From: Chthonomonas sp.
GTDB lineage: Bacteria > Armatimonadota > Fimbriimonadia > Fimbriimonadales > Fimbriimonadaceae
Length of the DNA: 64,000 nucleotides
Direction: 5' to 3'
NCBI GenBank assembly: GCA_016788425.1
Contig: JAEURQ010000002.1
Span: forward strand, 682,001-746,000
Below the pieces are notes generated by a model. That model was not told where the DNA came from, did not search any database, and saw only the letters and a list, made by a program, of their open reading frames with translations. This document shows positions 22,237 to 62,616 of this stretch, in pieces; positions within the stretch are counted from its first letter, which is position 1, and each line of letters opens with the position of its first letter. A program made the position numbers and the translations under genes.

Positions 22237-22311
22237 GGGGGCATAGCTCAATGGGAGAGCACCTGCTTTGCAAGCAGGGGGTTAGGGGTTCGAGTCCCCT
22301 TGCCTCCACCA
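22237..22311 (+). tRNA. tRNA-Ala (UGC anticodon)
   Basis: The cloverleaf is complete. The acceptor stem is GGGGGCA with TGCCTCC and includes the G3:U70 pair, the alanine identity element. The D stem is GCTC/GAGC. The anticodon stem CCTGC/GCAGG encloses the loop TTTGCAA (anticodon TGC), and the T arm has TTCGAGT. CCA is encoded at 22309-22311. A phage integrase gene lies 65 bp downstream, so the 3' half is the likely integration site. Confidence 0.98.
22285..22311 (+). other. Probable prophage attachment site (tRNA-Ala 3' end)
   Basis: Tyrosine-integrase phages often recombine in the T arm and acceptor end of a tRNA gene and restore it. The integrase begins immediately downstream and the rest of the window is phage. 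The matching repeat should be at the other prophage end, beyond 64000, so the exact core cannot be set here. Confidence 0.45.
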
Positions 22312-22338
22312 CGATTTTGAACCTAAATGCTTGACGAT

Positions 22339-22375: not shown

Positions 22376-23488
22376 TTATCTGTCTGCTAGTTTTGCAATC
22401 ATTTCCATTTCATCGTTGGGGCGGCGATCTTGGTACTTTCGACTGGTGCTGATGCTGGAATGGTTGAGAATTGCGAGAATCATGCTTTCAGGGGCACCGG
22501 CCGCCTGTAGGTTCGAGCGGCACGCAGCTCGCAGGTCGTGGAACGTGACGCGCTGGACCCCGGCCCGCTCGCAGAGTTCCGGCATCGACTTCGTGATTCG
22601 ATCCGGCGCGATTGGTTTGCCGTGGGCGTCGTGGAAAACATAAATCCCTTCGTGCTGGCCAAAGCTGAGAATCTTTTCGCCAACCGATCGAGGAATTCGC
22701 AGGCAGTGGACCTTGCCCGGCCGCTTTGACTTGAGGCGCTGCTCTTCGCCGTGCGATTGCCGGTTCGAGCGAAGTGTGACCTCGGCATGGGTGTCCAGAA
22801 GCTGGATGTCAGATTTCTTGAGCCCACACACCTCGTTGCGACGCAGTCCGATGTGGCTGGCCACGTAAACCGGGCCTTCGACGCTCGATCCCACGGCCGC
22901 TGCGCAGAGTTTGCGCACCAGCTCGCTGTCAAGATCAGTCCGTTCCTTGCGCTCTGGGATCGGGGCGAGTTCGACCAGGCGATGATCTTCGTACGGGTAG
23001 CGGCGGGTTTTCTTTGCCAACTCGAGTATTGATGTCATCACAGCGTAGATGTTCGCGACTCGCTTTGGCGATCTCGGTTTCACGCTGACAACCCGGCCGG
23101 TCTTGTCCTTGGTTTCGATCAGCTCGCTCGCGATTTCGGAAATCCACGGTTGCAATACTTCGAGCGTGAGGCTGGTCACTTGGTAGCCGTAAAACCGGCT
23201 GATGTGCTTTTCCAGGATCGAGACGTATCCTTTGATCGTTGAGGTTGTGCAACGGACTTTTGCGCGTGGCCACCAAACGGTTTCGATGAATTCGCCAAGA
23301 CATCCCGGCACCATTGGCTCGGGGCCATCGAGTTCACGCTCGAAGGCTTGCCGCTTTTGGATCACGATCAGGCGGCCCTCTTCTCCAGCTTTTCGCGACC
23401 TAAACCAGCGACGGTTTTTGCCTGAGCCCAGGCTTGTTTCCCACCGCTGATTGCTCTCGTCCCATCTCGGTTCCACGATCTGCATCAT
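22376..23488 (-). CDS. int: Tyrosine recombinase integrase
   Basis: This 370-residue integrase has an N-terminal arm/core-binding region and a C-terminal catalytic domain. Its tetrad residues are the first Arg in SHIGLRRNEVCGL, the HxLR motif in TFHDLRAACR, the later His in LNHSSISTSRKY, and the nucleophilic Tyr in the same stretch. I chose the ATG at 23488 because AAAGGAG lies 8 nt upstream (23497-23503). The start lies inside the end of the excisionase-like gene, an overlap that may couple the two. It is the last gene of the leftward operon, next to the tRNA. Confidence 0.95.
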   Translation of the reverse strand: MMQIVEPRWDESNQRWETSLGSGKNRRWFRSRKAGEEGRLIVIQKRQAFERELDGPEPMVPGCLGEFIETVWWPRAKVRCTTSTIKGYVSILEKHISRFYGYQVTSLTLEVLQPWISEIASELIETKDKTGRVVSVKPRSPKRVANIYAVMTSILELAKKTRRYPYEDHRLVELAPIPERKERTDLDSELVRKLCAAAVGSSVEGPVYVASHIGLRRNEVCGLKKSDIQLLDTHAEVTLRSNRQSHGEEQRLKSKRPGKVHCLRIPRSVGEKILSFGQHEGIYVFHDAHGKPIAPDRITKSMPELCERAGVQRVTFHDLRAACRSNLQAAGAPESMILAILNHSSISTSRKYQDRRPNDEMEMIAKLADR

Positions 23489-23693
23489 ACATGATTCTCC
23501 TTTCGATTTCGGCGGCAAGCCCGGTGACTTGCTTGGTAGCGAACGTGCCCCAGACTCGGTCCGGCGTCAGTGATCCGTCCTTGATGAGGGCTTTGAGTTG
23601 TGCGTCGCTGATGCCCAGGTACCGCGCGGTGGCCGCTCTGCTCATGATGGGAGACAGCGGGTCGCGTTCGGGGCTTGCAGCGGCGCGGGGCAT
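23400..23693 (-). CDS. Excisionase-like small HTH protein
   Basis: This 97-residue protein has a winged-helix, MerR/excisionase-like core (SRAATARYLGISDAQLKALI then KDGSLTPDRVWGTFA). It lies directly upstream of int and overlaps its start by ~89 bp, the usual place for an excisionase. The basic, unstructured C-terminus corresponds to the overlap. Function is inferred from size, fold and position. A gp3-like directionality factor candidate is also encoded at 36570. Confidence 0.6.
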   Translation of the reverse strand: MPRAAASPERDPLSPIMSRAATARYLGISDAQLKALIKDGSLTPDRVWGTFATKQVTGLAAEIERRIMYDADRGTEMGREQSAVGNKPGLRQKPSLV

Positions 23694-23694
23694 T

Positions 23695-24702
23695 TTAGGC
23701 GGTGGCCTCCGTGAAGACGATGGGGAGTTGAACGCGGCTGATTCGTTCGCGGATCAGATCGCAGTACTCCGCGTTGATTTCGATTCCGATGGCTTGTCGA
23801 CCGTGCGCGATCGCGGCGGCCAAGGTAGTGCCAGTGCCCGCGAACGGGTCGAGCACGACTCCACATGGTGGGCACGAGGCTAGTATGCAGCGGCGCGGGA
23901 TCTCAGATGGGAAAGCGGCGAAGTGGGCGCCCTTGAAAGGTTCGGGGCCGATGGTCCACACGGTGCGGCAGTTGCGGGTGTCGGATTCTACTCGTGTTGT
24001 TTCGCTGCGACGATCTTGACCGGGGCCGAACTTGCGACCGGGGACACTGCCTTTGTAGCTGGCCGGAACCTTGACGGTGGCATGCTCGATGGTCGCGTGT
24101 GAGCCGGGGCCGGTGTCCCAACCGGCGGGCGTCCGGCCGTTGGTGGTCTTGCGCGGAACCGCGATCGCTTTGGCGTCGTACCAGTAGCGGCGCGACTTCG
24201 CGAACATGAAAATGTATTCGTGGCTCCTTGTCGGACGGTCCTTGACCGACTCTGGCATGGCGGTCGGCTTCTCCCAGATGATGTCGCTGCGGAGAATGAA
24301 ACCCATGTCTTGCAGTGCGAAGGCGAGCCGCCACGGCTGGCCGATCAGGGATTTGGGCGGCAGGTCGGTGCCGTTTCGATTTGGCGCCTTTTCGGGATTC
24401 ACGCCCTTGCTTGGAACGCTGAGGTTGGACGGGCCGCCTTGGCCACCCCATGAACCGGCGTACGCGTCGCCCATGTTGATCCACATGGTTCCGGTCGCCT
24501 TGAGGACGCGGTGGCATTCGGCGAACACCTCGATCAGATTATCAAGGTACTCCTGGAAGGTGGGCTCCAATCCGATCATCCCGGGGTCCTCGCCGTACTT
24601 GCGAAGTCCCCAATAGGGCGGCGACGTGACGATGCAATCTACGCTCGCGTCGGGGAGAGTGCGGAGCATGTCGAGGGCGGTGCCATTGAGCAATTCGCAC
24701 AT
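23695..24702 (-). CDS. DNA methyltransferase, beta class (TSPPYW)
   Basis: This 335-residue S-adenosylmethionine-dependent enzyme has catalytic motif IV near the N-terminus (TSPPYW, residues 26-31) and motif I near the C-terminus (LDPFAGTGTTLAAA), the order of beta-class enzymes. SPPYW is most often found in N4-cytosine and some N6-adenine methylases. No partner nuclease is adjacent, so it is probably an orphan that protects phage DNA or marks regulatory sites. The ATG at 24702 overlaps the previous stop (TGATG). Confidence 0.93.
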   Translation of the reverse strand: MCELLNGTALDMLRTLPDASVDCIVTSPPYWGLRKYGEDPGMIGLEPTFQEYLDNLIEVFAECHRVLKATGTMWINMGDAYAGSWGGQGGPSNLSVPSKGVNPEKAPNRNGTDLPPKSLIGQPWRLAFALQDMGFILRSDIIWEKPTAMPESVKDRPTRSHEYIFMFAKSRRYWYDAKAIAVPRKTTNGRTPAGWDTGPGSHATIEHATVKVPASYKGSVPGRKFGPGQDRRSETTRVESDTRNCRTVWTIGPEPFKGAHFAAFPSEIPRRCILASCPPCGVVLDPFAGTGTTLAAAIAHGRQAIGIEINAEYCDLIRERISRVQLPIVFTEATA

Positions 24703-24911
24703 CAAAAGATGATCAACTCCTTCGGAATTTCGTCTGGCTTCGTGGCGACAATGCGGCATCCGATATTCTGCAATTCGATCACCTTGGTCGTCGCGTGGAT
24801 CGCTCGGACGATGGCCTCGTTTTGGCTCACGTCGCCAAGGAGGTTCATGAGTTTGTCGAGCGTTTGCCGATCAAGCGAACCGATGTTGAGACTAATCTGA
24901 GTGCGGCTCAT
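24702..24911 (-). CDS. Small protein, possible ribbon-helix-helix
   Basis: This 69-residue product (SRTQISLNIGSLDRQTLDKL, then VSQNEAIVRAIHATTKVI) has a strand-helix-helix pattern like RHH DNA-binding proteins. The ATG at 24911 has GGAGG 7 nt upstream (24919-24923), which decides the start. It is coupled to the methyltransferase by TGATG and overlaps the HNH gene by 20 bp. Confidence 0.6.
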   Translation of the reverse strand: MSRTQISLNIGSLDRQTLDKLMNLLGDVSQNEAIVRAIHATTKVIELQNIGCRIVATKPDEIPKELIIF

Positions 24912-28427: not shown

Positions 28428-28690
28428 CGCTCCTCCTCAAGGGTCGCATCAGCGACAAAATCAACGTGGAGTCGTGCTAGGTCGCGAGCGTTTTCGATTC
28501 CCACTTCGCGCTCAGTTGGCACAACCGACCGCTCGGGCTGGAATTCGTAAAGAGTGCCGTAAATCAGGTTGCCGCTTGCTGTGGCGTACCACTGGGGATA
28601 ACCACCGGGTAACTTGTGCGCCGTTTCGGGGCTCTTGCCGCACCCGATGAGGAGCAGAGCGATGGTAAGGATAAGTGTGTTAGGTTTCAT
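28424..28690 (-). CDS. Phage-encoded lipoprotein
   Basis: The 88-residue protein has an N-terminal type II signal (KPNTLILTIALLLIGC) with a lipobox at LIGC. A short polar domain follows. A lipoprotein made from the early leftward operon is expected to reach the host envelope, where phage lipoproteins often block superinfection. That role is inferred from type and not from homology. The start lies in a TGATG overlap with the methylase gene. Confidence 0.75.
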   Translation of the reverse strand: MKPNTLILTIALLLIGCGKSPETAHKLPGGYPQWYATASGNLIYGTLYEFQPERSVVPTEREVGIENARDLARLHVDFVADATLEEER

Positions 28691-29487
28691 CAGATGTCCA
28701 TGAGCACCTGGCCCTTGCGGTCCAGGATGATGTCGGGCGCGGCGATAACCGCGGCGGGTGCGAGTGGGTCGGTTTCAGGCACCAGCGTTGCAATGGCGCT
28801 AGCCTGGCGCATGATGTTGAGGGCCGCGAGCTCGTGAGGCTGAGCCAGTCCGGTCGCTAGCGGGTGGAAGATATTGCGGCGACGTCCGTAAACTTCGTAG
28901 CTTAGTGAGTTTCCGTGAACGACCTCGGCCGGGATTCCGTGCAGAGTGAAGTTGATGAACGACATGTCGCAGGCCAGGGGACTCACGTCCCAAGCCTCGA
29001 CGTAGATGTTCAGGCAACTGCACAACCCCCGGATCGAGATGAGTTCCTCGGCGGCGCACAACACCATTTGCCCGGCACCAGTGCAAGGTTCCTGAATCAG
29101 GAGTGGGCGGTCAACGGGGATCGTCACATCGGTTACGGTCAGCCTTGCCATGAGACGGCAGACATCGTACGGGGTGTAGAACTCCCCGTTGCTTCGCTGG
29201 GCGCTTTTGCTCCCGAGTTCCATGTGGACCGGCCCCATGACATCTCGGAAGTCGTTCAACTCCGCGGCCGCGATGAACTCGGCGAACGTATCACTGAGGG
29301 CTTGGATTTGGGCAGGCTTGTAGGGCGCGACCAATTGCCGATAGTCATCCTCGCGCTGTCCGGCGGCGAGCGCACACGCGGCGCATGCTACGAATAGCCG
29401 GAACGCTTCATGAGGATACGTGCGAAGGATGTCGCCAAGCTTCTCGAATGTTCGGGGACCGAACGAAGGCTTAGCGGTTTTCTTCAC
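28690..29487 (-). CDS. Phage N-6 DNA methylase-like protein
   Basis: The 265-residue protein has SNGEFYTPYDVCRLMARL and motif I QEPCTGAGQMVLCAAEEL, the pattern of HsdM-like adenine methylases. I see no NPPY/F motif IV. Where it should fall the sequence reads HGNSLSYEVYGRRRNIF. Short phage relatives of HsdM share this loss, so activity is uncertain and a binding or regulatory role is possible. The GTG start at 29487 overlaps the stop of a 55-residue gene (GTGA). Confidence 0.82.
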   Translation of the reverse strand: MKKTAKPSFGPRTFEKLGDILRTYPHEAFRLFVACAACALAAGQREDDYRQLVAPYKPAQIQALSDTFAEFIAAAELNDFRDVMGPVHMELGSKSAQRSNGEFYTPYDVCRLMARLTVTDVTIPVDRPLLIQEPCTGAGQMVLCAAEELISIRGLCSCLNIYVEAWDVSPLACDMSFINFTLHGIPAEVVHGNSLSYEVYGRRRNIFHPLATGLAQPHELAALNIMRQASAIATLVPETDPLAPAAVIAAPDIILDRKGQVLMDI

Positions 29488-37664: not shown

Positions 37665-37858
37665 TCACTCTGCACTTGACAAAGGGGTTCGAGGAAGTCT
37701 TCGTGGACCCCTCGAATATTACGGTTGTACAACCGACTGAAGCGGGAGGGTCCTTTGTAGTTTGCGGACCCGACTGGCGAATTCGTGTCAACGAATCGCC
37801 CACTGAAATCCGGGCATTGATGGAGTCGCACAAGGGGGCGCAGCATGTCGCTAGCTGA
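37661..37858 (+). CDS. Hypothetical small protein
   Basis: This 65-residue beta-rich product (ITLHLTKGFEEVFVDPSNIT) starts in an ATGA overlap and ends 14 bp into the FtsK gene. The function is unknown. Confidence 0.65.
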   Translation: MITLHLTKGFEEVFVDPSNITVVQPTEAGGSFVVCGPDWRIRVNESPTEIRALMESHKGAQHVAS

Positions 37859-39983
37859 TTCGCTGGCCGGGAAATCCTCCCTGCCCCTACGTGGAAGCGT
37901 GGTGCTCGCGATGATGAAGGCGTTTGCGATGAAGCCGCCTCAGGGTGACGACAAATGGCCGACGTGTTCGGTGGGGGTTGCGCACAACTCGGTTGTGGCC
38001 ACGGATGGCAGTTCGGCGATCATCATTGGTGACCAGGCGGCGGAGCATGAGGCGACGGATTACAAGGAAACGGTGATCGCGTGTACCCGTAGCGAGCTGT
38101 ACGGTGAGCCGGTCGATCTCGACGCGCTGGAGCGCAACATCGACGAAGAAAGTGGTGAGGTCACGATGATGCCTAACGTGAGCGGGACGATTGCTCGAGA
38201 GATTGCGGCGATGGAACGCGTCGCCTCGCTCGACCCTCGTGCGCTCCTCCGAATGGCACAAGTGGCGATCAAAGCCGGAGCGACAACGGTCGAAATTCTC
38301 CAACCGGTTAAGGCAGACGTAAAGCGGCTTGGTTTCAATCTCGCGTTCACTCCCGCTTCGGAGCACATCAACCTGTTTTCCGAGTGGAACGGCATGATTA
38401 CGGCCTCGGGGGTTGTGATTGTCGACGAAGGGCGGAAGTCCGAGCGGGCTAAACCCGAACCGTCAGCGGAGAATCCGTCCACCGCTGACGAACCAGCGTT
38501 TGACGCGGAATGGACGAAGCCGGCCAAGAAGGGCAAGAAGAAGCCCGCGGCTCAGGAGCCAGCGGTTGAGGCTGAGGCACCTCCGGTGCTCACGGTGGTG
38601 GAATCAGTGGACATCCATCAGCAAGAAGAGCGGGGCGGAGTTACATTGCCGGCGCTCTCGATCCTCGGTGATTACCCGATGGAAACGGGCACCGGTGAAC
38701 ATGCAGACGAGATGCTCAAGGCCCTCGCAAATTTCAATATCGCTGGGCGGGTTGAGCGAGTGGACTGTGGCCCATGTGTGAGCATGTACGAGGTCAAGAT
38801 TCCGAACACCGTTTCAGTCAAGCGCGTGACCTCGCTCCAGGATGACCTGCAAGCCCAGCTGGGAGTTCGATCGATTCGGATCCAGGCCCCGATTCCGGGA
38901 AAGAAAACGATCGGTATCGAATTGCCGAACGCAAAACCGCAGACGGTCGGACTTCGCCATGTACTGGCTCAGAAGGATTTCGTTTACGGCCCGCCGCTGA
39001 CCATCGGCGTGGGTCTGGATGTGGCGGGGAACCCGGTGTTTGCGAACCTGGCCGAGATGCCTCACCTGCTCATCGCCGGTGCGACAAACTCCGGTAAGTC
39101 GATTGGCGTTGCATCGCTGATTTCCAGCCTTCTGCTCCGAAATACTCCAAAAGAGTTGCGCATGATCATGATCGATCCGAAGCGGGTTGAACTGACCCTG
39201 TTCGATGAGATTCCGCACCTGATGTGCCCGGTCATTACGGACATGAAAGAGGCGCCGGGCGTGCTTCGCGCGATCTGGCGGGAGATGGACTGCCGCTATG
39301 ACATCCTGAAATCGGAGGGCCGGCGGAACATCGAGAGCTACAACGAAACGCTCGAACCGGAAGACCGAATGCCCTATATCGTGGTGGTCATCGACGAGCT
39401 CGCGGATCTGATGATTCAGGCGCGTGAGGAAGTCGAAACCTCGATAGTGCGGCTGACGCAGATGGCTCGCGCGGTCGGTATCCACCTGGTGATTGCCACT
39501 CAGCGACCATCAGTTGATGTCGTGACGGGCCTGATCAAGGCAAATGTCCCGAGCCGAATTGGGTTCGCCTGTGCGAGTGGGATTGATTCCAAGGTCATTC
39601 TCGATTCGACCGGAGCGGAGAAGCTGCTTGGCCGGGGCGACATGCTGTATTCGCCAGTCGGGGCTCCGCCGCGGCGGGTGCAAGGAGCGTACGTTTCGGA
39701 GGCTGAGGTCGCGCAAATTGTTGGTTACTGGAAGGCGCAGTCGACGAGGCCAGACTACGAGCTTAAGTTGATTGCCCCACCTGACTACGAGGATGAAGGG
39801 ACGGACGAACGGTATTCGGACGCCGTTGTTTTTGCTCGAGCTGAGGGCAAGATTTCCACGGCGATGCTCCAACGCAAGTTTGCGATCGGGTTCATGGCCG
39901 CGAAGCGACTCCTTGACGAGATGGAGCGTGACGGGGTGGTTGGCCCGGCAGTTGGTCCAGGCCCGCGGGTGGTGATCGGATGA
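37845..39983 (+). CDS. Phage FtsK/SpoIIIE-type DNA translocase with sliding-clamp-like N-terminus
   Basis: This 712-residue protein has three parts. Residues ~1-195 resemble a DNA polymerase III beta (clamp) unit, with GVAHNSVVATDGSSAIIIG near residue 50 and beta-rich ends. A charged linker (residues ~196-265) follows. Residues ~266-712 are a complete FtsK motor: alpha domain, Walker A GATNSGKS (412-419), Walker B VVVIDELADLM (513-523), ATQRPSVDVVTG, and a C-terminal gamma winged helix (ISTAMLQRKFAIGFMAAKRL). There is no membrane anchor. Motor and gamma match chromosomal FtsK closely. The clamp reading of the N-terminus is a fold guess. It lies among early replication genes. Confidence 0.9.
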   Translation: MSLADSLAGKSSLPLRGSVVLAMMKAFAMKPPQGDDKWPTCSVGVAHNSVVATDGSSAIIIGDQAAEHEATDYKETVIACTRSELYGEPVDLDALERNIDEESGEVTMMPNVSGTIAREIAAMERVASLDPRALLRMAQVAIKAGATTVEILQPVKADVKRLGFNLAFTPASEHINLFSEWNGMITASGVVIVDEGRKSERAKPEPSAENPSTADEPAFDAEWTKPAKKGKKKPAAQEPAVEAEAPPVLTVVESVDIHQQEERGGVTLPALSILGDYPMETGTGEHADEMLKALANFNIAGRVERVDCGPCVSMYEVKIPNTVSVKRVTSLQDDLQAQLGVRSIRIQAPIPGKKTIGIELPNAKPQTVGLRHVLAQKDFVYGPPLTIGVGLDVAGNPVFANLAEMPHLLIAGATNSGKSIGVASLISSLLLRNTPKELRMIMIDPKRVELTLFDEIPHLMCPVITDMKEAPGVLRAIWREMDCRYDILKSEGRRNIESYNETLEPEDRMPYIVVVIDELADLMIQAREEVETSIVRLTQMARAVGIHLVIATQRPSVDVVTGLIKANVPSRIGFACASGIDSKVILDSTGAEKLLGRGDMLYSPVGAPPRRVQGAYVSEAEVAQIVGYWKAQSTRPDYELKLIAPPDYEDEGTDERYSDAVVFARAEGKISTAMLQRKFAIGFMAAKRLLDEMERDGVVGPAVGPGPRVVIG

Positions 39984-49877: not shown

Positions 49878-49885
49878 GATTGGGC

Positions 49886-51184
49886 ATGCTGTTCAACTCA
49901 GTTTTGCCCGGAGACCTTCGCAACCCTAGCCTGGCCCATGTAGCCGAGACTGCTCGGCATTGCCGAAACCTCAATGCGTTAGCGCCGCTTATGACCGCGC
50001 TCGGCAAGAAAAAGGCGACGGTCGCGGTTCTCGGGGACTCAAACACAAAGCGGTTCGGCCTCGACACGCCGGACAGCGGTTGGTTCGAAGTGTTGATCGG
50101 CGAGCTTCAGGGCATTTGCGGATTTGGCGGAGCTGGGTTCCTTGCGGCGGCGACCATGGGCGGTTCAGAGGATGCCACGAGTTACACCAACCAGTTCAGT
50201 GTGGCGGTGCCGGCCAATTCGGTGGACTGGACGCCCAATGCGGCGGCTGGGACCGGCTATAACGGGCGATGGATTGAAGCGTGGGGCGCATCTGTCGCCA
50301 GGTTGAAGGCGGCGGAAGCCGTGACCATGTCAGTCACGACAAGCCGGGGGCGATCTCGAGCAACGCGGGTAGGAGTCGTGACACTCAACAAGAATGGCGC
50401 AACGATCACCCAGCCGTACACGGTTTCGGGTGCGACTACGGCGAGTGGAAACCTCACCCTGCCGGCGGTCAATGATGCTTCCTTGCGAGTCGACTGGATC
50501 ACGCTCACTCCAGGAGTTAACACCATAACGCTGGGGCAGCCATCGGGCGGTGACCCGTGGATTTGCGGATTTCTGTTTGATCAGGGCGACGCATCCAGCG
50601 GTGTTCTTGGCTACAACTTTGCGCATCACGGAATTCGACTCATCGATGACGGTGGGAGTAGCGCGGGCTATTGGCGGGCGAATCTGGTTACGGGGATTGC
50701 GAACCACTTCAACACCTTGAAGTCGGATCGAGTTCTCGATTGCATGATCTGCAACGCGGGACAAAACGACATTGGTAGCAACGCGAGCACAGTTGAAAAC
50801 TTCGTCGCCGCTTACCGTGAGATAGCAACCCGAGCGCAAGCCGCAGGCGGTTGCGTATTAGGGCTGCAGTCCCAGCGAGTTCACCTCGCAAACGGCTCAA
50901 CCCTCACATTTGAACAAACACGGGCGGCCATGGACCAGGTGGCGGACGAATTCCCTAACGTGTTCGCAGTTTATGACGAGTGGGCGCACCTCGGGTTTGA
51001 AGAGTTTCAGCCAGCCAACCGAACGATCAGCGCGGTGACCGTGGCCGGAAACGCGGCGGCAAAGGGATGGCGATGGGACGACATCCACTATTCGCAAGGG
51101 TTTCACTACGGGCGTGCCAATCGAATGATGCAGGTTCTGATGGCGGCCGAGATCGCGAACCAGGGAATGGCGTCGAGGATTTAA
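49886..51184 (+). CDS. SGNH/GDSL-like hydrolase
   Basis: The 432-residue protein has block I VAVLGDSNTKRFG (Gly50, Asp51, Ser52), block III AGQNDIG (Asn294) and block V WDDIHYS (Asp398, His401), a complete SGNH esterase set. A beta-rich insertion lies at ~residues 95-235. It has no signal peptide and sits between head genes, so it may be a virion-borne or capsid-associated esterase, for example against O-acetylated surface sugars. I chose the ATG because it has the standard spacing from the CGTACTT motif. Confidence 0.82.
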   Translation: MLFNSVLPGDLRNPSLAHVAETARHCRNLNALAPLMTALGKKKATVAVLGDSNTKRFGLDTPDSGWFEVLIGELQGICGFGGAGFLAAATMGGSEDATSYTNQFSVAVPANSVDWTPNAAAGTGYNGRWIEAWGASVARLKAAEAVTMSVTTSRGRSRATRVGVVTLNKNGATITQPYTVSGATTASGNLTLPAVNDASLRVDWITLTPGVNTITLGQPSGGDPWICGFLFDQGDASSGVLGYNFAHHGIRLIDDGGSSAGYWRANLVTGIANHFNTLKSDRVLDCMICNAGQNDIGSNASTVENFVAAYREIATRAQAAGGCVLGLQSQRVHLANGSTLTFEQTRAAMDQVADEFPNVFAVYDEWAHLGFEEFQPANRTISAVTVAGNAAAKGWRWDDIHYSQGFHYGRANRMMQVLMAAEIANQGMASRI

Positions 51185-55765: not shown

Positions 55766-56172
55766 TCGAGGCCGTGATCAATTGCCTGGAATTGAAACTG
55801 CGGCCTGTTCTGCCCGCAGGGGTGGGCTTGTATGGCTATCCCGGGCCAAAGGCCAAACAACCGGTTGCGGTGATCCACAAGTTCATCAACGGTCAGGCGG
55901 ACTACTTCCTGGGAAATGTTGAGCGGTCAGTGGACATCGTGGTTGAGGTTGCGGTTGAATCGGTCTCGGAAAACATCACACCTGTGCAGGAAATGGCGGA
56001 CCTGATGCACCGGACGATCATGTCCATCCGGTCGTTTTCGACTGAGTACGGCATTATTGCGGATGTGTTTCGTATGGCGCCGGTGAACTATCCAATTGAT
56101 TTGAACGGCAAGACGGTCCAGCACCTGGGCGGCATCTACAAGTTCAACGTTCGCCCCCTGCCACCAGAGTGA
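55762..56172 (+). CDS. Tail terminator-like protein
   Basis: This 136-residue protein (EAVINCLELKLRPVLPAG then VEVAVESVSENITPVQEM) has the alpha/beta pattern of tail-terminator (lambda gpU-like) proteins. ATGA overlap upstream. The assignment is by order and fold pattern. Confidence 0.65.
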   Translation: MIEAVINCLELKLRPVLPAGVGLYGYPGPKAKQPVAVIHKFINGQADYFLGNVERSVDIVVEVAVESVSENITPVQEMADLMHRTIMSIRSFSTEYGIIADVFRMAPVNYPIDLNGKTVQHLGGIYKFNVRPLPPE

Positions 56173-56609
56173 GGATCAAGGTCAAGATGAACCGGATTCC
56201 GGAGTTGGCGAACGCCACGCCGGAACTTCGTGACGCTTGCGCTCGCGCTGTTGGATTTGCGCTGCAGGAGGAAACGGTCGAGCAGATCCGGAGCATGGGA
56301 GCGGTGGACACCGGGGCCATGATGAATTCGGTCTATCTGGAGACCCATTCGATGAGCGAGCGGGGCGCCGCCGTCAGTGCGGCCGCGACCCGTGCGGGAG
56401 CGGCATCAAAGGAGTTCTTGGAAGCGATTCCCAGCGGGCGGCCCGGCCGGGGAATGTCCAAGGTGGCACTGGCCGCTAACTACGCGGTGTACGTGCACCA
56501 GGGGGCACGAGGGCGGGCGTCCAGGCCGTTCTTGATGGTGGCCGGCCAGAATGTCAGCGGCCAGGCGCGACGGATTGTAGCGGGGTTGGTTAAGGAGTGG
56601 GCAGGCTAA
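56169..56609 (+). CDS. HK97 gp10-like tail-completion protein
   Basis: This 146-residue protein has the HK97_gp10 pattern: TGAMMNSVYLETHS, then SKVALAANYAVYVHQGARGR and SRPFLMVA. It starts at a GTG in a GTGA overlap. Its stop overlaps the stop of the minus-strand methyltransferase-nuclease gene. Confidence 0.85.
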   Translation: MRIKVKMNRIPELANATPELRDACARAVGFALQEETVEQIRSMGAVDTGAMMNSVYLETHSMSERGAAVSAAATRAGAASKEFLEAIPSGRPGRGMSKVALAANYAVYVHQGARGRASRPFLMVAGQNVSGQARRIVAGLVKEWAG

Positions 56610-58255
56610 ATTCGCAGTTTCCCTTGAATTCGGTACCGCGATGGTCGAATGTAGTATCCATCCGGAACAGCAAGTCCCACTTCCTTTTGGAGTAGTTGTT
56701 CTATTGGCAACATTTGAAGCCGAGGCACCTTGCGTCCTGCCGATTCCACTGTGCCCAAACTTAGGGCTTCTTGCTCCATGCCTCGCGTTGGGCGTTCGAG
56801 CGTGATGAGTGCGCCGATTGGAGCCTTCTCCCGCTCGATGACATGCGCAAAGTCGCGTACAATGCTCGGGTTGAGTCCTCCCCCTTTGACCTGAATCGGA
56901 GCGATGCTTGTGTCGTGAATCGTTGACTCAAGCCACAGATCGCCATCGATTCCGCGGTCGCCCCCCTTCTTTTCCCTTGGCTGACCGTTGACCAACCCGA
57001 CGGCCCACATTTCGAATTGCTTGTGACTATCCTTTCGCGTCAAGTTGAAGAACTCACGAGCCGCGTCCAGATCAGCGGGCAGCCCCTCAACTCGGAAATC
57101 GGTGCCTTTCTCCAACCCAAACTCCTCCATCAAGCGTTCTTCAATCTCATTGATGGCCAAGAATGTCACGTCGATCCCGATCCACTTCCTCTTGAGCTTC
57201 TGAGCGGCAGATACTGTTGTTCCGCATCCGCAAAATGCGTCGAGCACAACATCGCCCTCATCGGATGAAGCCTCGATTATTCGCTCCATAAGGGCGACCG
57301 GCTTTTGGGTTGGATATCCCCTCGCCTCTCCACTTCGACCGGCGGACTGCAATGGTGGAATGTCTGACCAAATGTTTGATACAACCTGCCCTTGTAGCTC
57401 TTCGAGATATCGCTTCAGTCTGAGTCGCTTCTTTGTATCCGGGCGCCCATCGAGTAGCTTAGGGATGTGAATTCGCCCTGCAATGTCCAATTTCTCCATT
57501 GTTTCCAATGAGTACCGCCATCCGCGGGGAGGAGGATCGAATCCTTTGTACTTGTACCAACCGTTCGGAAGCCCCGTGGCTTTATTGATCGCGGCCATGC
57601 CACCACCTGCAGGTGCAGACATATCTGCAAGTTGGTACTTGCCTCGCCCGTCATGGTCATCGTGTCTGTAGAAACTCCTTACGTAGTCGGGATCGTGAGG
57701 GCAAAAGACCGGCCGGAACTTGACCCGATCAGACTTACCGTAGAAGAGAATCGTATCTGATACGTTGGCAAACTTTAACTTTGCGTCGCTGTGAGCACTT
57801 TGGCGCTTCCAAACAATTTCGTTTCGGAAGTTTTGTGCTCTAAAAACGAGGTCGCAAACGAGTTTTAAATAATGGCTAGCCGCAGGATCGCAGTGAAGAT
57901 AAAAGGACCCAGTTGTCTTCAACTTGTACGAAAGGCTCAGAATCCTTGGAGCCATTGCCACCAAGTAAGCCATCATTTCAGACTCACCGATAAGGTCGTA
58001 AAGGACATCAAGCAGTCGGCGCAACCGTGGGTGATCACATGTCTGCTGGAACTCTTCCATGGCGGTCGGGTCCCACTTCCATGTATCCTCGAACGCCATG
58101 ATTTGAGCTGGTGACGGATCGCCTCTGACTTGCTTGAACAGCAGGTTGTACTGCCTCGCAGAATTGAATGGTGGATCAATGTAAATGAGGTCCACAGACT
58201 CATCCGCAACGCGATCCAGCATTTTTAGATTGTCGCCAAAGTACAACGTGTTCAT
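56606..58255 (-). CDS. DNA methyltransferase fused to PD-(D/E)XK restriction endonuclease
   Basis: This 549-residue polypeptide carries an adenine methyltransferase with motif IV DPPF (residues 27-30) and motif I DAFCGCGTT (339-347), in beta-class order. Its C-terminal ~130 residues carry an Mrr-like nuclease: GGDRGIDGDLW (Asp437) followed by IAPIQVKGGG (Gln455-Val-Lys457). Modification and restriction would therefore lie in one protein. It is on the minus strand inside the tail module and convergent with the gp10-like gene. A 100-bp gap separates it from the rightward tape measure. Confidence 0.88.
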   Translation of the reverse strand: MNTLYFGDNLKMLDRVADESVDLIYIDPPFNSARQYNLLFKQVRGDPSPAQIMAFEDTWKWDPTAMEEFQQTCDHPRLRRLLDVLYDLIGESEMMAYLVAMAPRILSLSYKLKTTGSFYLHCDPAASHYLKLVCDLVFRAQNFRNEIVWKRQSAHSDAKLKFANVSDTILFYGKSDRVKFRPVFCPHDPDYVRSFYRHDDHDGRGKYQLADMSAPAGGGMAAINKATGLPNGWYKYKGFDPPPRGWRYSLETMEKLDIAGRIHIPKLLDGRPDTKKRLRLKRYLEELQGQVVSNIWSDIPPLQSAGRSGEARGYPTQKPVALMERIIEASSDEGDVVLDAFCGCGTTVSAAQKLKRKWIGIDVTFLAINEIEERLMEEFGLEKGTDFRVEGLPADLDAAREFFNLTRKDSHKQFEMWAVGLVNGQPREKKGGDRGIDGDLWLESTIHDTSIAPIQVKGGGLNPSIVRDFAHVIEREKAPIGALITLERPTRGMEQEALSLGTVESAGRKVPRLQMLPIEQLLQKEVGLAVPDGYYIRPSRYRIQGKLRI

Positions 58256-58355: not shown

Positions 58356-61300
58356 ATGGCCACCCGCGTCGCTGAACTGGAAGTACTGCTCGAAGCTGAT
58401 ACGAAATCCCTGGAACAGGGGATGGATCGGGCGAACAAAGCCATTGATGGGGTGAGCAAGCGCGCTAACAAGGGCGGAAGGTCGCTCCAGGAATTCGGTA
58501 ATAGCACTTCAGCCGCGGGGCGTGACCTGATGGCGTTCTCCGCTCCAATGCTCGGTGCGCTCGGATACATCGGCAAGGTTGCTGCAGACTTCGAGAAGGT
58601 TCAGAACGAGATCCAGGCGGTTGCTGGTCTCACTGCTTCGCAAATGGAGGCGGTCTCGGAAAAGGCGCGACAACTTGGTGCAGACCTTACGCTCCCTGCG
58701 ACCAGCTCGACGGATGCCATGCAGGCGATGCTTGAGCTGTCGAAGGCCGGACTCTCCGTGGTCGACACCATGGAAGCCTCACGTGGCGTCCTCTTGCTCT
58801 CGGCTGCCGGCGCCATCTCGAACGCTCGGGCAGCCGAAGTCGCGGCCAATGCACTGAACGCGTTTCAATTGAGCGGTGATAAGGCGGCAATGGTGGCCGA
58901 CGCGCTCTCCGCCGCAGCCAACCGCTCATCTGCCGGAGTCGATGACTTGGCCCAAGGTTTCCAGGCGGGCGCGGCAGTGGCCAACATGTACGGGCTTACC
59001 GTGCACGAATTCACAACGACCCTAGCGGCGATGGCCAATGCCGGTATCAAGGGGTCCGACGCCGGCACCTCTGTGAAGGCCATGCTGATGGCCCTCACTC
59101 CAAAAACGTCGAAGGCAGCGGAGGCGATGGCCGAGCTCGGGCTCCAGTTCTACGACGCCGCAGGCAAACTCAAGCCGTTCCCTGACATCCTGTCGAACCT
59201 TCATTCGGTGCTCGAACCAATGACCCAGGAGCGCCGCAACTCGGTGATGAGCATGATCTTCGGCTCCGACGGTGTCCGGGCGGCCAGCATACTGTTCCAA
59301 CTTGGTCCGAAAGGGTTTGCTGACCTGGCCGGGGGCATCAGTCAAGCGGGCGCCGCCGGTGACATGGCCAGTGGCAAGCTCAAAGGGTTTGCCGGAGCGT
59401 GGGAGCGGCTGAAATCGGTGACGCAATCAGTAGCTGAAGACCTTGGTTCCAGAGTGCTCGGACTCGCGACCCAGGTTGTCGAAGGAGTTTCGCAGATGAT
59501 CGCCGTGGTGAGTTCTTTGCCGGAGCCGGTGCAGAATGGCATCCTGGTGTTCATGGGGTTGGTTGCGGCAGCGGGCCCTGTTTTGATGGCAATTGGATCC
59601 ATGGCGACGGGGCTATCGGCCCTTGCTCCGATTCTGGCGGCTTTGACGGGGCCGATTGGTTTAGTGGTGGCGGGCGTCGCCGCACTTGCGGCCGCGTTCG
59701 CGACCAACTTCGGTGGCATTCGCGATGCGGTGATGCCGCTGATCCACGAAGCAGCTCCCCAGTTCTTGGCCGCGTGGGAGAATGTGAAAGAGTGGATGGT
59801 GACGGCGTGGTCGGGATTCTCCGCAGAGGTTGCGTCATGGTTCGAGCCGGTTGTCGCCTGGTTCAAAGAGAACTTGCCCGATATTCAGCGTACGGTCGAG
59901 ACTGTGCTGACGACGATTCAAGAATTCTGGAAGGCGCATGGTGAGGACATCACGGCCACGGCCAAATTTGTGTGGGATCTTATCAAGTCGATTGTCGGCA
60001 CTGTGATGCAGGCGATTGGCAACATTATCAAGGTTGTGATGAAGGTCATTCAAGGTGACTGGAAGGGGGCTTGGGAAGTCATCCGGCGCTACTTTGCTGA
60101 CCTGTGGACGGGAATCCTGGGCGTCCTTCAAAAGGCAGTCGTTGCCATATCTGGACTGATGGTTACGCTGTGGAACATGATCAAGGATGCGGCGGGCCGA
60201 ATCTTCCATGCGGCCGTTGACATTGGCAAAAACATTGTCGAGGGCATCAAGCAAGGGTTCATGCGTGTTTGGGAGGGTGCCAAGAAGTGGATGCGAGACC
60301 AAATTACTGCCTTTGTTGAAGGAGTTCGGGGCGTTCTCGGCATTCGTTCACCTTCCAAGGTCTTTGAAGAAATCGGGGGTTACGTCGTTCAGGGCTTTGT
60401 GAACGGGATCGAGGCGGGTCTGGCTCGCATGTTTGAGGTTGGCCGGGCCATGTCGCTCGCGGCTCGGGCGGGGCTGGATTCGGTGCCGCTTACGGGGCTG
60501 GACGCACTGGAGAAGGCGGTGGAGCGGGCTGAGGACCGAGTCGTTCAAATGAAGACGGCCATTGCCGAGGCGATGGACCCGGTTCGAAACGGGCTGGCCA
60601 AATTTGTCGGGCTCAGCCTATCGGAATGGAAAAAGCTGGGCGACGGGATGCAGAAGAAGCTGGTTGGCTTAAGGTTCATGCAAGCTTTGAAGGAAGGCAA
60701 GCTGACATGGCTCGGCGGTCTTGGTCCCTATTCCGGTCCGCTACCGAAGGTACCGGAGCCCGAGACGCCGGCATTGGTTGACACCACTCGGACGTTGGAT
60801 CAGTGGCAGCTCCTGAATCAGCAGATCCACGATGATTCGATGAAGATGCGCGAGGACCTGTATGACACGTTCACGAAGCTCTTTGACGATATTCTGGGTG
60901 GTGGCTTTAAGAACCTATTCGGAACCATCCAGCGGACGATCAGCAACTTTCTGCTCCAGCAGGCTCATGCCGGGCTCTCGGAGCGATTTGGGAGCTGGCT
61001 GGGCGGGGCGTTGAACATTCCGGGATTCGGCGGGGGAATGAGTCCGGTTCCAGTTGGTCCGATGGGCGGAATCTTTGCGGCAGCGATGTCGATTCCTGGT
61101 TTGCTTAAGCGTCGCTCGGTCGGGGGACCGGTTTCAGCTGGCGACACGGCCCTGGTGGGCGAGGAGGGTCCTGAGGTAGTGCAGTTTGGACGCTCTGGTT
61201 CGGTTACGAGCGCCCGGCAAACGGCGGCGCTGGCCGGTAGCAACAACATCGTGGTGCACATCCACATCAATGCGATGGATGCCGGGTCGGTGGTTCGGAG

Positions 61301-61361
61301 TTCAAAGCAGGTCGCGCAGCAATTCGGGAATGCTATCCGCGATGCCATGGGGAACAACTAG
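58356..61361 (+). CDS. Tape measure protein
   Basis: This 1001-residue protein has the TP901 tape measure signature in its N-terminal third (KARQLGADLTLPATSSTDAM and AAEVAANALNAFQLSGDKAA). The middle has several hydrophobic segments (~residues 385-450) and Trp-rich helices. The C-terminus ends with a glycine-rich stretch, then VVHIHINAMDAGSV. Tape measure length sets tail length, and 1001 residues suggest a long flexible tail of roughly 150 nm by the usual 0.15 nm per residue. Its stop overlaps the next gene (TAGTG). Confidence 0.95.
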   Translation: MATRVAELEVLLEADTKSLEQGMDRANKAIDGVSKRANKGGRSLQEFGNSTSAAGRDLMAFSAPMLGALGYIGKVAADFEKVQNEIQAVAGLTASQMEAVSEKARQLGADLTLPATSSTDAMQAMLELSKAGLSVVDTMEASRGVLLLSAAGAISNARAAEVAANALNAFQLSGDKAAMVADALSAAANRSSAGVDDLAQGFQAGAAVANMYGLTVHEFTTTLAAMANAGIKGSDAGTSVKAMLMALTPKTSKAAEAMAELGLQFYDAAGKLKPFPDILSNLHSVLEPMTQERRNSVMSMIFGSDGVRAASILFQLGPKGFADLAGGISQAGAAGDMASGKLKGFAGAWERLKSVTQSVAEDLGSRVLGLATQVVEGVSQMIAVVSSLPEPVQNGILVFMGLVAAAGPVLMAIGSMATGLSALAPILAALTGPIGLVVAGVAALAAAFATNFGGIRDAVMPLIHEAAPQFLAAWENVKEWMVTAWSGFSAEVASWFEPVVAWFKENLPDIQRTVETVLTTIQEFWKAHGEDITATAKFVWDLIKSIVGTVMQAIGNIIKVVMKVIQGDWKGAWEVIRRYFADLWTGILGVLQKAVVAISGLMVTLWNMIKDAAGRIFHAAVDIGKNIVEGIKQGFMRVWEGAKKWMRDQITAFVEGVRGVLGIRSPSKVFEEIGGYVVQGFVNGIEAGLARMFEVGRAMSLAARAGLDSVPLTGLDALEKAVERAEDRVVQMKTAIAEAMDPVRNGLAKFVGLSLSEWKKLGDGMQKKLVGLRFMQALKEGKLTWLGGLGPYSGPLPKVPEPETPALVDTTRTLDQWQLLNQQIHDDSMKMREDLYDTFTKLFDDILGGGFKNLFGTIQRTISNFLLQQAHAGLSERFGSWLGGALNIPGFGGGMSPVPVGPMGGIFAAAMSIPGLLKRRSVGGPVSAGDTALVGEEGPEVVQFGRSGSVTSARQTAALAGSNNIVVHIHINAMDAGSVVRSSKQVAQQFGNAIRDAMGNN

Positions 61362-61678: not shown

Positions 61679-61708
61679 TGCCTGAATGGGGCTGAACCGG
61701 CCCGATGC

Positions 61709-61715
61709 CGTACTT
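61709..61715 (+). promoter_or_regulatory. CGTACTT motif, before GH5 gene
   Basis: Exact CGTACTT, 10 nt before the ATG at 61726. It overlaps an upstream in-frame ATG (61705) and so decides the start. The spacer (gtcccttttg) has no Shine-Dalgarno. Confidence 0.5.
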
Positions 61716-61725
61716 GTCCCTTTTG

Positions 61726-62616
61726 ATGAGACGCGTTCTACTAATTCTCCTAACTGTCCTTTCCATTTCGCTGGCCCATGGGTTTGTTGATGTGGGGGCG
61801 GGCGTGTCCCTCGGATGGAAGCCGGATCGGGCAAAAATTGCTGAGATTCATGAAGCAGGATTCAAGTTGCTGCGGTTGCCGTTTGACTCGAATCCGGACG
61901 TCGAGCTGGTCAAGGCGGCGACCTCGAAAGGTCTTCGGGTCGTCGTCGATTTTCACCCTCCGCTTTCCTGGTACTCGGACCCTTTTGCCATGTTTGACCT
62001 GCCGGGGAAGTGGTCGAGATGGGCAAAGCAACTGCAGGGAATTTCGAGTGATGAACTAGCGTTTGAGGTCCTCAATGAACCGAGGGCGGCGAAGCGAGGC
62101 CCGGTATACGACTCGCTCATGGTTGCCTGCATTGCGGCAATCCGGGAAGTTTCTCCTTCGCGCTGGATTGTAGTTTCTAACCCGCAACTTTCTGATATTG
62201 ATTGGTTTGCCGGACCCTTGGGAAATTGGACAGCCCCTCAGTACGACAGACTCATTGTTCCGCTACATTACTACCGGCCGTACGAAGTGACCCATCCGGC
62301 GAGTTACCGTGGCCAAGTCGGCCCAGACACCCCGGTGGGGGGAGGGACTAAGTTTGACCTTTCGGATTGGTCGAACCGTGAACTTCATTTCCAACGCTAT
62401 GTGAACTGGTGCCGCGAGAATCGTGTGCAGGCATGGCTTGGCGAAGCTGGGTGTTATGAGTCGGTGCCAGGCAGGCTTACTTGGTTCAGCGAAGTGGCGA
62501 AGTTGGCTCGTACCTACTCGGTTCCAGTTTGCTGGTGGGGTTGGCGCGATCGGTTCGGCTATCGGCCCGAGCAAAAGGACGCTGCTTCAGTTCTCAAGGT
62601 CATGCTGGATCGGTGA
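61726..62616 (+). CDS. Secreted glycoside hydrolase, GH5-like
   Basis: The 296-residue protein has a signal peptide (RRVLLILLTVLSISLAHG) and a cellulase-like TIM barrel. The acid/base Glu118 is in FEVLNEPR, the nucleophile Glu240 is in WLGEAGCYE, and HYYRPYEV lies in between. GH5 enzymes cut beta-glucans, mannans and similar polymers. The signal peptide suggests export by the host, so it could help the lysogen or the phage degrade surface polysaccharide. I chose the ATG at 61726 because it gives a clean signal peptide and the standard CGTACTT spacing. Confidence 0.85.
   Translation: MRRVLLILLTVLSISLAHGFVDVGAGVSLGWKPDRAKIAEIHEAGFKLLRLPFDSNPDVELVKAATSKGLRVVVDFHPPLSWYSDPFAMFDLPGKWSRWAKQLQGISSDELAFEVLNEPRAAKRGPVYDSLMVACIAAIREVSPSRWIVVSNPQLSDIDWFAGPLGNWTAPQYDRLIVPLHYYRPYEVTHPASYRGQVGPDTPVGGGTKFDLSDWSNRELHFQRYVNWCRENRVQAWLGEAGCYESVPGRLTWFSEVAKLARTYSVPVCWWGWRDRFGYRPEQKDAASVLKVMLDR

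What the first reader, a model, noticed from the sequence alone, without database searches (positions are those of the whole stretch)
56606..58255. Minus-strand methyltransferase-nuclease fusion inserted in the tail module
A single 549-residue protein has DPPF/DAFCGCGTT methylase motifs and a C-terminal D...QVK Mrr-like nuclease, on the opposite strand between the gp10-like and tape measure genes. Its stop overlaps the neighbour's stop. It looks like a cargo (moron) restriction-modification gene that could protect the lysogen from other phages.
Basis: partly seen in the sequence, partly recalled or inferred. Interest (0 to 1): 0.68.

Follow-up and report, generated by a model that had tools for sequence, protein, structure and literature searches.

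The report
Prophage-borne one-protein restriction-modification enzyme
A virus dormant in a bacterial chromosome carries one gene whose protein joins a DNA-marking enzyme to a DNA-cutting domain, a widespread but apparently uncharacterised one-piece defence enzyme that databases label only as a methyltransferase.

Summary
Window 56606-58255 (-) is one 549-residue gene that combines a beta-class (EcoP15I Mod-like) N6-adenine methyltransferase with a C-terminal Mrr-type PD-(D/E)XK nuclease domain. Its TAG overlaps the neighbour's TAA. It lies in a 50.4-kb prophage bounded by 27-bp att repeats at tRNA-Ala, in a Fimbriimonadales-type Armatimonadota genome. Several hundred relatives were found in bacterial genomes, IMG/VR contigs, plasmids and 28 phage records, where they are labelled only 'DNA methyltransferase'. 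In 177 relatives both active sites are nearly invariant, while the segment between them (residues 151-310) is variable and exchanged between otherwise similar genes; a tandem pair in a related bacterium has identical ends and a swapped middle. No partner gene recurs beside it. The best reading is a solitary, helicase-free, single-chain restriction-modification enzyme carried as cargo. 'Clean insertion' could not be shown: related prophages lack the gene, but their tail genes are ordered differently. Cleavage, target site and protection of the lysogen are inferred, not shown. The combination fits neither Type IIG (gamma-class methyltransferase) nor Type III (needs Res), so it is a new variant of a known kind. 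REBASE could not be searched.

The parts
56606..58255 (-). single-chain beta-class DNA methyltransferase / Mrr-type nuclease gene, 549 aa
57806..58255 (-). N-terminal methyltransferase part, residues 1-150, with motif IV
   Evidence: conservation profile and region identities
58166..58177 (-). motif IV DPPF, residues 27-30
   Evidence: D, P and F 178/178, second P 177/178 in the family
57326..57805 (-). variable target-recognition region, residues 151-310
   Evidence: median pairwise identity 0.38 against 0.60 and 0.72 in the flanking methyltransferase parts; swapped in tandem paralogues; history differs from the core
57122..57325 (-). C-terminal methyltransferase part, residues 311-378, with the AdoMet-binding motif I
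57215..57241 (-). motif I DAFCGCGTT, residues 339-347
   Evidence: near invariant
56672..57079 (-). Mrr-type PD-(D/E)XK nuclease domain, residues 393-528
   Evidence: Mrr_cat in 40/40 members; model pLDDT 92.8; AspBHI Z 10.5, MspJI Z 9.9, LlaBIII nuclease Z 9.1
56885..56959 (-). nuclease active site, D433 to K457 (GDRGIDG...QVKGG)
   Evidence: D433 178/178, D437 176/178, S/Q/E455 178/178, K457 178/178
56169..56609 (+). upstream neck-type neighbour ('gp10-like'); stop overlaps that of the methyltransferase gene
   Evidence: no Pfam/PHROG match
58356..61361 (+). tape-measure protein gene, 100 bp from the methyltransferase start
22286..22312 (+). attL: 27-bp repeat in the 3' end of tRNA-Ala; second copy (attR) at extended coordinate 72635-72661, outside the window
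22376..23518 (-). tyrosine integrase of the prophage
   Evidence: Pfam Phage_integrase 1e-16

Best explanation
The gene encodes a solitary, helicase-free, single-chain restriction-modification enzyme carried as cargo by an integrated prophage. Residues 1-150 and 311-378 form a beta-class (circularly permuted, EcoP15I Mod-like) adenine-N6 methyltransferase. Residues 151-310 recognise the target site. Residues about 393-528 form an Mrr-type PD-(D/E)XK nuclease with active site D437...Q455-x-K457. The inferred mode of action is that the protein, probably as a dimer, binds its site through the shared recognition region; modified sites are left alone and unmodified sites on incoming DNA are cut nearby, so the lysogen's DNA is marked and foreign DNA is restricted. 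Shown here: domain make-up, active-site conservation, modular exchange of the recognition region, solitary occurrence, location in an att-bounded prophage. Inferred: methylated base, cleavage, dimer, expression in the lysogen, anti-phage effect.
For: Methyltransferase: PF01555 2.9e-39; closest folds EcoP15I Mod, 6k0w Mod and M.MboIIA. Nuclease: Mrr_cat in 40/40 members; fold closest to AspBHI, MspJI and the LlaBIII nuclease; D and K invariant in the family. Recognition region is variable, swapped between two tandem genes with identical ends, and in this protein closest to L107/L046 (63/62%) while the core is closest to L029 (58%). No recurrent neighbour in 159 loci except mobile-element genes such as integrases. 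In the phage collection the nuclease domain occurs only in the same 28 full-length fusions. Prophage limits. GC 51.9% against 55-65% in neighbours. Antisense to the late genes.
Against: No cleavage or methylation data exist. The acidic/Gln position before the Lys is Ser in about half of the family, which is not a canonical PD-(D/E)XK residue, though Ser occurs there in the Cfr10I/NgoMIV type (own knowledge). No sigma-70-like promoter or clear terminator was found for the gene (the consensus may not apply). One relative keeps the methyltransferase with a frameshifted nuclease (L040), so methylation alone can persist. No clean with/without pair of prophages.
Confidence: 0.66

Rival explanations
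1. It is a modification enzyme that shields the phage's own DNA from the host's restriction; the Mrr-type domain is used for DNA binding or is not cutting.
For: The prophage holds two more methyltransferase genes; Ser/Gln variants in the active site; one copy with a frameshifted nuclease but intact methyltransferase; phage annotators call it a methyltransferase.
Against: Asp and Lys of the nuclease site are invariant in 178 sequences from many phyla, not expected of a relic; the gene is also common on plasmids and chromosomes, beside ordinary metabolic genes, where phage self-protection is not the selective force.
Confidence: 0.17
2. It is a modification-dependent (Type IV-like) nuclease coupled to a methyltransferase: the Mrr domain cuts DNA bearing another methylation pattern while the methyltransferase marks its own.
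For: The closest nuclease folds, AspBHI and MspJI, are modification-dependent enzymes; Mrr itself is modification-dependent (PMC3874153).
Against: There is no separate reader domain (SRA or winged helix); the only DNA-recognition region is shared with the methyltransferase. The same nuclease fold serves modification-blocked enzymes such as LlaBIII (PMC4872093).
Confidence: 0.08
3. It is a nuclease-methyltransferase used during infection: it marks phage DNA and degrades host DNA to feed replication.
For: It sits in the late gene region of a phage.
Against: It is antisense to the late operon, and relatives lie beside integrases, repressors or on plasmids and chromosomes, not in lytic early cassettes.
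Confidence: 0.04
4. It is an orphan methyltransferase with a regulatory role in the host, the nuclease being vestigial.
For: Solitary gene.
Against: A variable, exchangeable recognition region and invariant nuclease residues are the opposite of a conserved orphan such as CcrM.
Confidence: 0.05

Closest known systems
Type IIG / IIL combined restriction-modification enzymes (MmeI, BcgI kind)
   Same: Methyltransferase and nuclease in one chain sharing one recognition module; no helicase motor.
   Different: Those have a gamma-class methyltransferase (PMC4081073), usually with the nuclease at the N-terminus (own knowledge); here the methyltransferase is beta-class, with motif IV and the recognition region ahead of motif I, and the nuclease is C-terminal.
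Type III modification subunits (EcoP15I Mod, 4zcf; Mod 6k0w; Mbo45V)
   Same: Same beta-class fold, recognition region inserted between motifs IV and I; best structural matches.
   Different: Type III needs a separate Res helicase-nuclease; none recurs beside this gene and the nuclease is in the same chain.
Mrr-family modification-dependent nucleases (Mrr, MspJI, AspBHI)
   Same: Nuclease domain of the same fold with D...QxK site.
   Different: Those pair it with a reader domain for modified DNA; here it is paired with a methyltransferase.
Type ISP enzymes (LlaBIII, LlaGI)
   Same: One chain with an Mrr-type nuclease and an adenine methyltransferase; the nuclease domains superpose (Z 9.1).
   Different: Type ISP has a helicase-like ATPase, gamma-class methyltransferase and N-terminal nuclease, about 1,500 residues (PMC4872093); this protein has 549 and no motor.
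'DNA methyltransferase' genes of Streptomyces phages OzzyJ/Yasdnil, Mycobacterium phages Dori/Mask/Amgine, Marinitoga phage MPV1
   Same: Full-length homologues, 38-44% identical over 95%, with the same nuclease domain.
   Different: Different recognition regions and genome positions: near integrase, repressor or lysis genes.

Membership tests
Beta-class DNA adenine/cytosine amino-methyltransferase | PF01555 with motif IV (DPP[YF]) ahead of the recognition region and motif I | tested here: met
   PF01555 2.9e-39; DPPF at 27, FCGCGT at 341; beta-class folds at the top of the PDB list
Mrr-type PD-(D/E)XK nuclease | Mrr_cat sequence/fold with D...[DEQ]xK site | tested here: met
   40/40 members match Mrr_cat; AspBHI/MspJI Z about 10; D437...Q455-x-K457. 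This one sequence alone stays below Pfam's cut-off
Type IIG restriction enzyme | methyltransferase and nuclease in one chain | tested here: met
Type IIG restriction enzyme | gamma-class methyltransferase domain (definition in PMC4081073) | tested here: not met
   beta-class motif order and fold
Type IIG restriction enzyme | AdoMet-stimulated cleavage at a fixed distance from the site | not testable with these tools
   needs protein
Type III restriction-modification system | Mod of EcoP15I type | tested here: met
   top fold matches 4zcf, 6k0w
Type III restriction-modification system | neighbouring Res helicase-nuclease gene | tested here: not met
   neighbours are tail genes; no recurrent Res within three genes in 159 loci
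Type ISP | helicase-like ATPase domain in the chain | tested here: not met
   549 aa, no such domain in Pfam or the model
Type IV (Mrr, MspJI) | reader domain for modified DNA | tested here: not met
   only the methyltransferase with its recognition region precedes the nuclease
Prophage cargo gene (moron) | independent gene inside a prophage, composition and orientation unlike its surroundings | tested here: met
   att repeats; antisense; GC 51.9% against 55-65%
Prophage cargo gene (moron) | absent from related phages at the same place with a clean join | tested here: inconclusive
   absent in G010 and G007, but their tail-gene order differs there; no close relatives found
Prophage cargo gene (moron) | own promoter and terminator | tested here: inconclusive
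   no sigma-70-like promoter; terminator-like sites no more than by chance

The most novel reading that the evidence does not exclude
A large, mobile family of helicase-free restriction-modification enzymes in which a Type III-Mod-like beta-class methyltransferase is fused to an Mrr nuclease, with exchangeable recognition cassettes that recombine between tandem copies, spread by phages and plasmids, and missed by defence-gene surveys because its members are filed as methyltransferases.
Probability: 0.5. Interest if true: 0.65.

Novelty: new variant of a known kind. Interest (0 to 1): 0.5.

Why it matters
If active, it is a one-gene, motor-free defence that a phage can give its host, and a compact chassis (about 540 aa) in which one recognition cassette directs both marking and cutting. 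Natural cassette swaps show which segment sets specificity, useful for engineering. It would also mean that many 'orphan methyltransferases' of phages and plasmids are complete restriction-modification enzymes; neither the PADLOC nor the NCBIfam models matched here describe the fusion.

Tried and rejected
Looked for an empty-site pair: capsid, tape-measure and neck proteins against IMG/VR, and capsid and tape-measure proteins against the phage collection, gave no close relative; Armatimonadota prophages sharing 29-39% of the capsid protein were read, of which G010 and G007 hold a comparable module but with a reordered tail. First suspected that the gene had replaced the missing tail protein between the neck gene and the tape measure; rejected, because a homologue of that 760-aa protein lies after the tape measure (62647-64890). 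Looked for a partner restriction gene: none recurs (a restriction endonuclease gene next to one plasmid copy is a single case). A PDB sequence search with the nuclease profile found nothing real. Paper searches found no description of this fusion; REBASE and most subscription papers were not available.

Full report
What is there. The reverse strand of 56606-58255 encodes 549 residues from an ATG. The TAG of this gene (56606-56608) overlaps the TAA of the forward-strand gene 56169-56609. The next forward gene, 58356-61361, is a tape-measure protein. The upstream neighbour has no Pfam or PHROG match; 'gp10-like' rests on position and on weak homologues in the same place in two related prophages.

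Where it lies. The window is part of contig C2 of a 2.67-Mb genome. A tRNA-Ala at 22237-22311 is followed by a tyrosine integrase gene at 22376-23518. A 27-bp repeat of the tRNA's 3' end (22286-22312) recurs at extended coordinate 72635-72661, where there is no tRNA. The prophage is therefore about 50.4 kb with both attachment sites. It holds an S24-type repressor gene, a Gp3-like recombination directionality factor, terminase, portal, head and tail genes. The gene is thus inside a prophage with intact ends, on the strand opposite to the late genes, with 51.9% GC against 55-65% in its neighbours.

Domains. Pfam finds N6_N4_Mtase at 2.9e-39. The order of motifs (DPPF at 27, then a long insert, then DAFCGCGTT at 339) is that of the beta class; DPPF points to adenine-N6 (own knowledge of the class). 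A model built on an alignment of 58 sequences has mean pLDDT 87.8, and its closest solved folds are EcoP15I Mod, the 6k0w Mod, M.MboIIA, CcrM and M.BceJIV. The C-terminal domain was modelled alone (pLDDT 92.8); the best structural matches are the nuclease domains of AspBHI (Z 10.5, rmsd 3.1, 117 aligned), MspJI (Z 9.9, rmsd 3.0, 117 aligned) and the Type ISP enzyme LlaBIII (Z 9.1, rmsd 3.1, 112 aligned). Foldseek on its own gave only weak E-values (best 2.7e-3, EcoO109I; MspJI 9.1e-3). All 40 family members tested match Mrr_cat, best 5.6e-12, although this one sequence stays under the cut-off. In the model, D437 stands before a strand and Q455-V-K457 at the end of the next one, as expected for this superfamily.

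Family. tblastn found 28 phage records with full-length relatives (Streptomyces phages of the OzzyJ/Yasdnil kind, Mycobacterium phages Dori, Mask and Amgine, Marinitoga phage MPV1), 38-44% identical and annotated as DNA methyltransferase or methylase, and 7 plasmids. In an alignment of 177 relatives plus this protein, the nuclease D433 and K457 are invariant (178/178), D437 is kept in 176, and position 455 is Ser (95), Gln (78) or Glu (5). Methyltransferase motifs are equally fixed. Because the best-scoring hits were kept, these counts are biased towards full-length members. Ser before the Lys is unusual; it is known in the Cfr10I/NgoMIV type with a displaced acidic residue (own knowledge), and here D/E468 is conserved in 161 of 178, a candidate for that role (inference). 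One relative, L040, has an intact methyltransferase and a frameshift just after SVKGG.

Recognition region. Median pairwise identity is 0.60 for residues 1-150, 0.72 for 311-378, 0.46 for the nuclease and 0.38 for 151-310. In AP024673 two tandem genes are nearly identical at both ends, including the whole nuclease domain, and differ strongly between. In this protein the middle segment is closest to L107 (63%, core 47%) and to a Rhodobacteraceae gene, L046 (62%, core 42%), while the core is closest to an Armatimonadota gene, L029 (58%, middle 36%). The middle segment therefore moves independently of the catalytic parts, as a specificity cassette would.

Neighbourhood and mobility. Among genes within three positions in 159 loci, no family recurs in more than seven; the recurring ones are mostly tyrosine integrases, serine recombinases, transposases and repressor-like regulators (names from reading the sequences). 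No separate restriction gene or Res helicase recurs. In named phages the gene lies near the integrase (OzzyJ, Amgine), the CI-like repressor (MPV1) or the lysis genes (Mask). The nearest core relatives form a supported group of five rows with this one (98, FastTree), mostly Armatimonadota, and sit between ordinary chromosomal genes. On the core tree the viral/non-viral label changes at least 43 times; shuffled labels give 58 on average, minimum 48. So exchange is frequent but there is some clustering; genome contigs may hold prophages, so this is only indicative.

Clean insertion. Six other Armatimonadota genomes hold a homologue of the capsid protein. The two with a comparable module, G010 (39%) and G007 (35%), have the neck-type gene followed directly by a roughly 760-aa tail protein, then a small gene and a tape-measure protein, without the methyltransferase. 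In the window the 760-aa homologue lies after the tape measure (62647-64890, 34% identical). The gene therefore sits at a module junction, but the order differs and no close pair with and without it exists in the collections searched.

How it most likely works. One recognition region serves both activities: adenine methylation protects sites, and the Mrr-type domain cuts near unmodified sites, probably as a dimer because EcoP15I Mod and the Mrr-type enzymes act as oligomers (inference from the families). As cargo it would mark the lysogen's DNA and restrict other incoming DNA. Methylation, cleavage, site and expression remain to be measured.

Classification. Type IIG is defined as a DNA-cleavage domain plus a gamma-class methylation domain in one chain (PMC4081073); the gamma subgroup is the main one in Types I and IIB/G (PMC6158711). 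Type ISP adds a helicase and has a gamma-class domain and N-terminal Mrr-family nuclease (PMC4872093). Type III needs Res (own knowledge). Mrr and MspJI join the nuclease to a reader of modified DNA (PMC12707154; PMC3874153). The present protein works like a Type IIG enzyme but fails its gamma-class feature, so I do not file it there. Paper searches found no account of this combination, but REBASE and most subscription papers were not available, so 'uncharacterised' means not found here.

Noticed in passing
window 22286-64000 and on to extended coordinate 72661: Complete prophage limits: tRNA-Ala attL, integrase, 27-bp attR copy outside any tRNA; about 50.4 kb.
   Followed up: yes
window 23695-24759 (-) and 28690-29487 (-): Two further methyltransferase genes in the same prophage, one N6_N4_Mtase next to the integrase and one N6_Mtase (PF02384), so the prophage has three.
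   Followed up: partly
window 37845-39983 (+): A 712-aa FtsK/SpoIIIE-type translocase with alpha, motor and gamma domains inside the prophage.
   Followed up: no
window 61705-62616 (+): A GH5 cellulase-like protein (2.3e-22) with a signal-peptide-like start between the tape measure and the large tail protein.
   Followed up: no
window 49880-51184 (+): A protein with a sub-threshold GDSL-lipase match between the head genes.
   Followed up: no
window 62647-64890 (+), L221: Large tail protein (homologue of the 760-aa protein after the neck gene in G010) lies after the tape measure here; it carries an F5/8 type C domain.
   Followed up: partly
L027 3824-5569 and 5917-7629 (AP024673): Tandem copies of the fusion gene, identical at both ends, with a swapped recognition segment; the same genome holds another copy and what looks like a broken one.
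   Followed up: yes
L040 5986-7476: A relative with an intact methyltransferase and the nuclease frameshifted right after SVKGG, a natural nuclease-minus copy.
   Followed up: partly
L024 3816-4763: On a Cellulosimicrobium plasmid a separate gene annotated restriction endonuclease lies directly upstream of the fusion gene.
   Followed up: no
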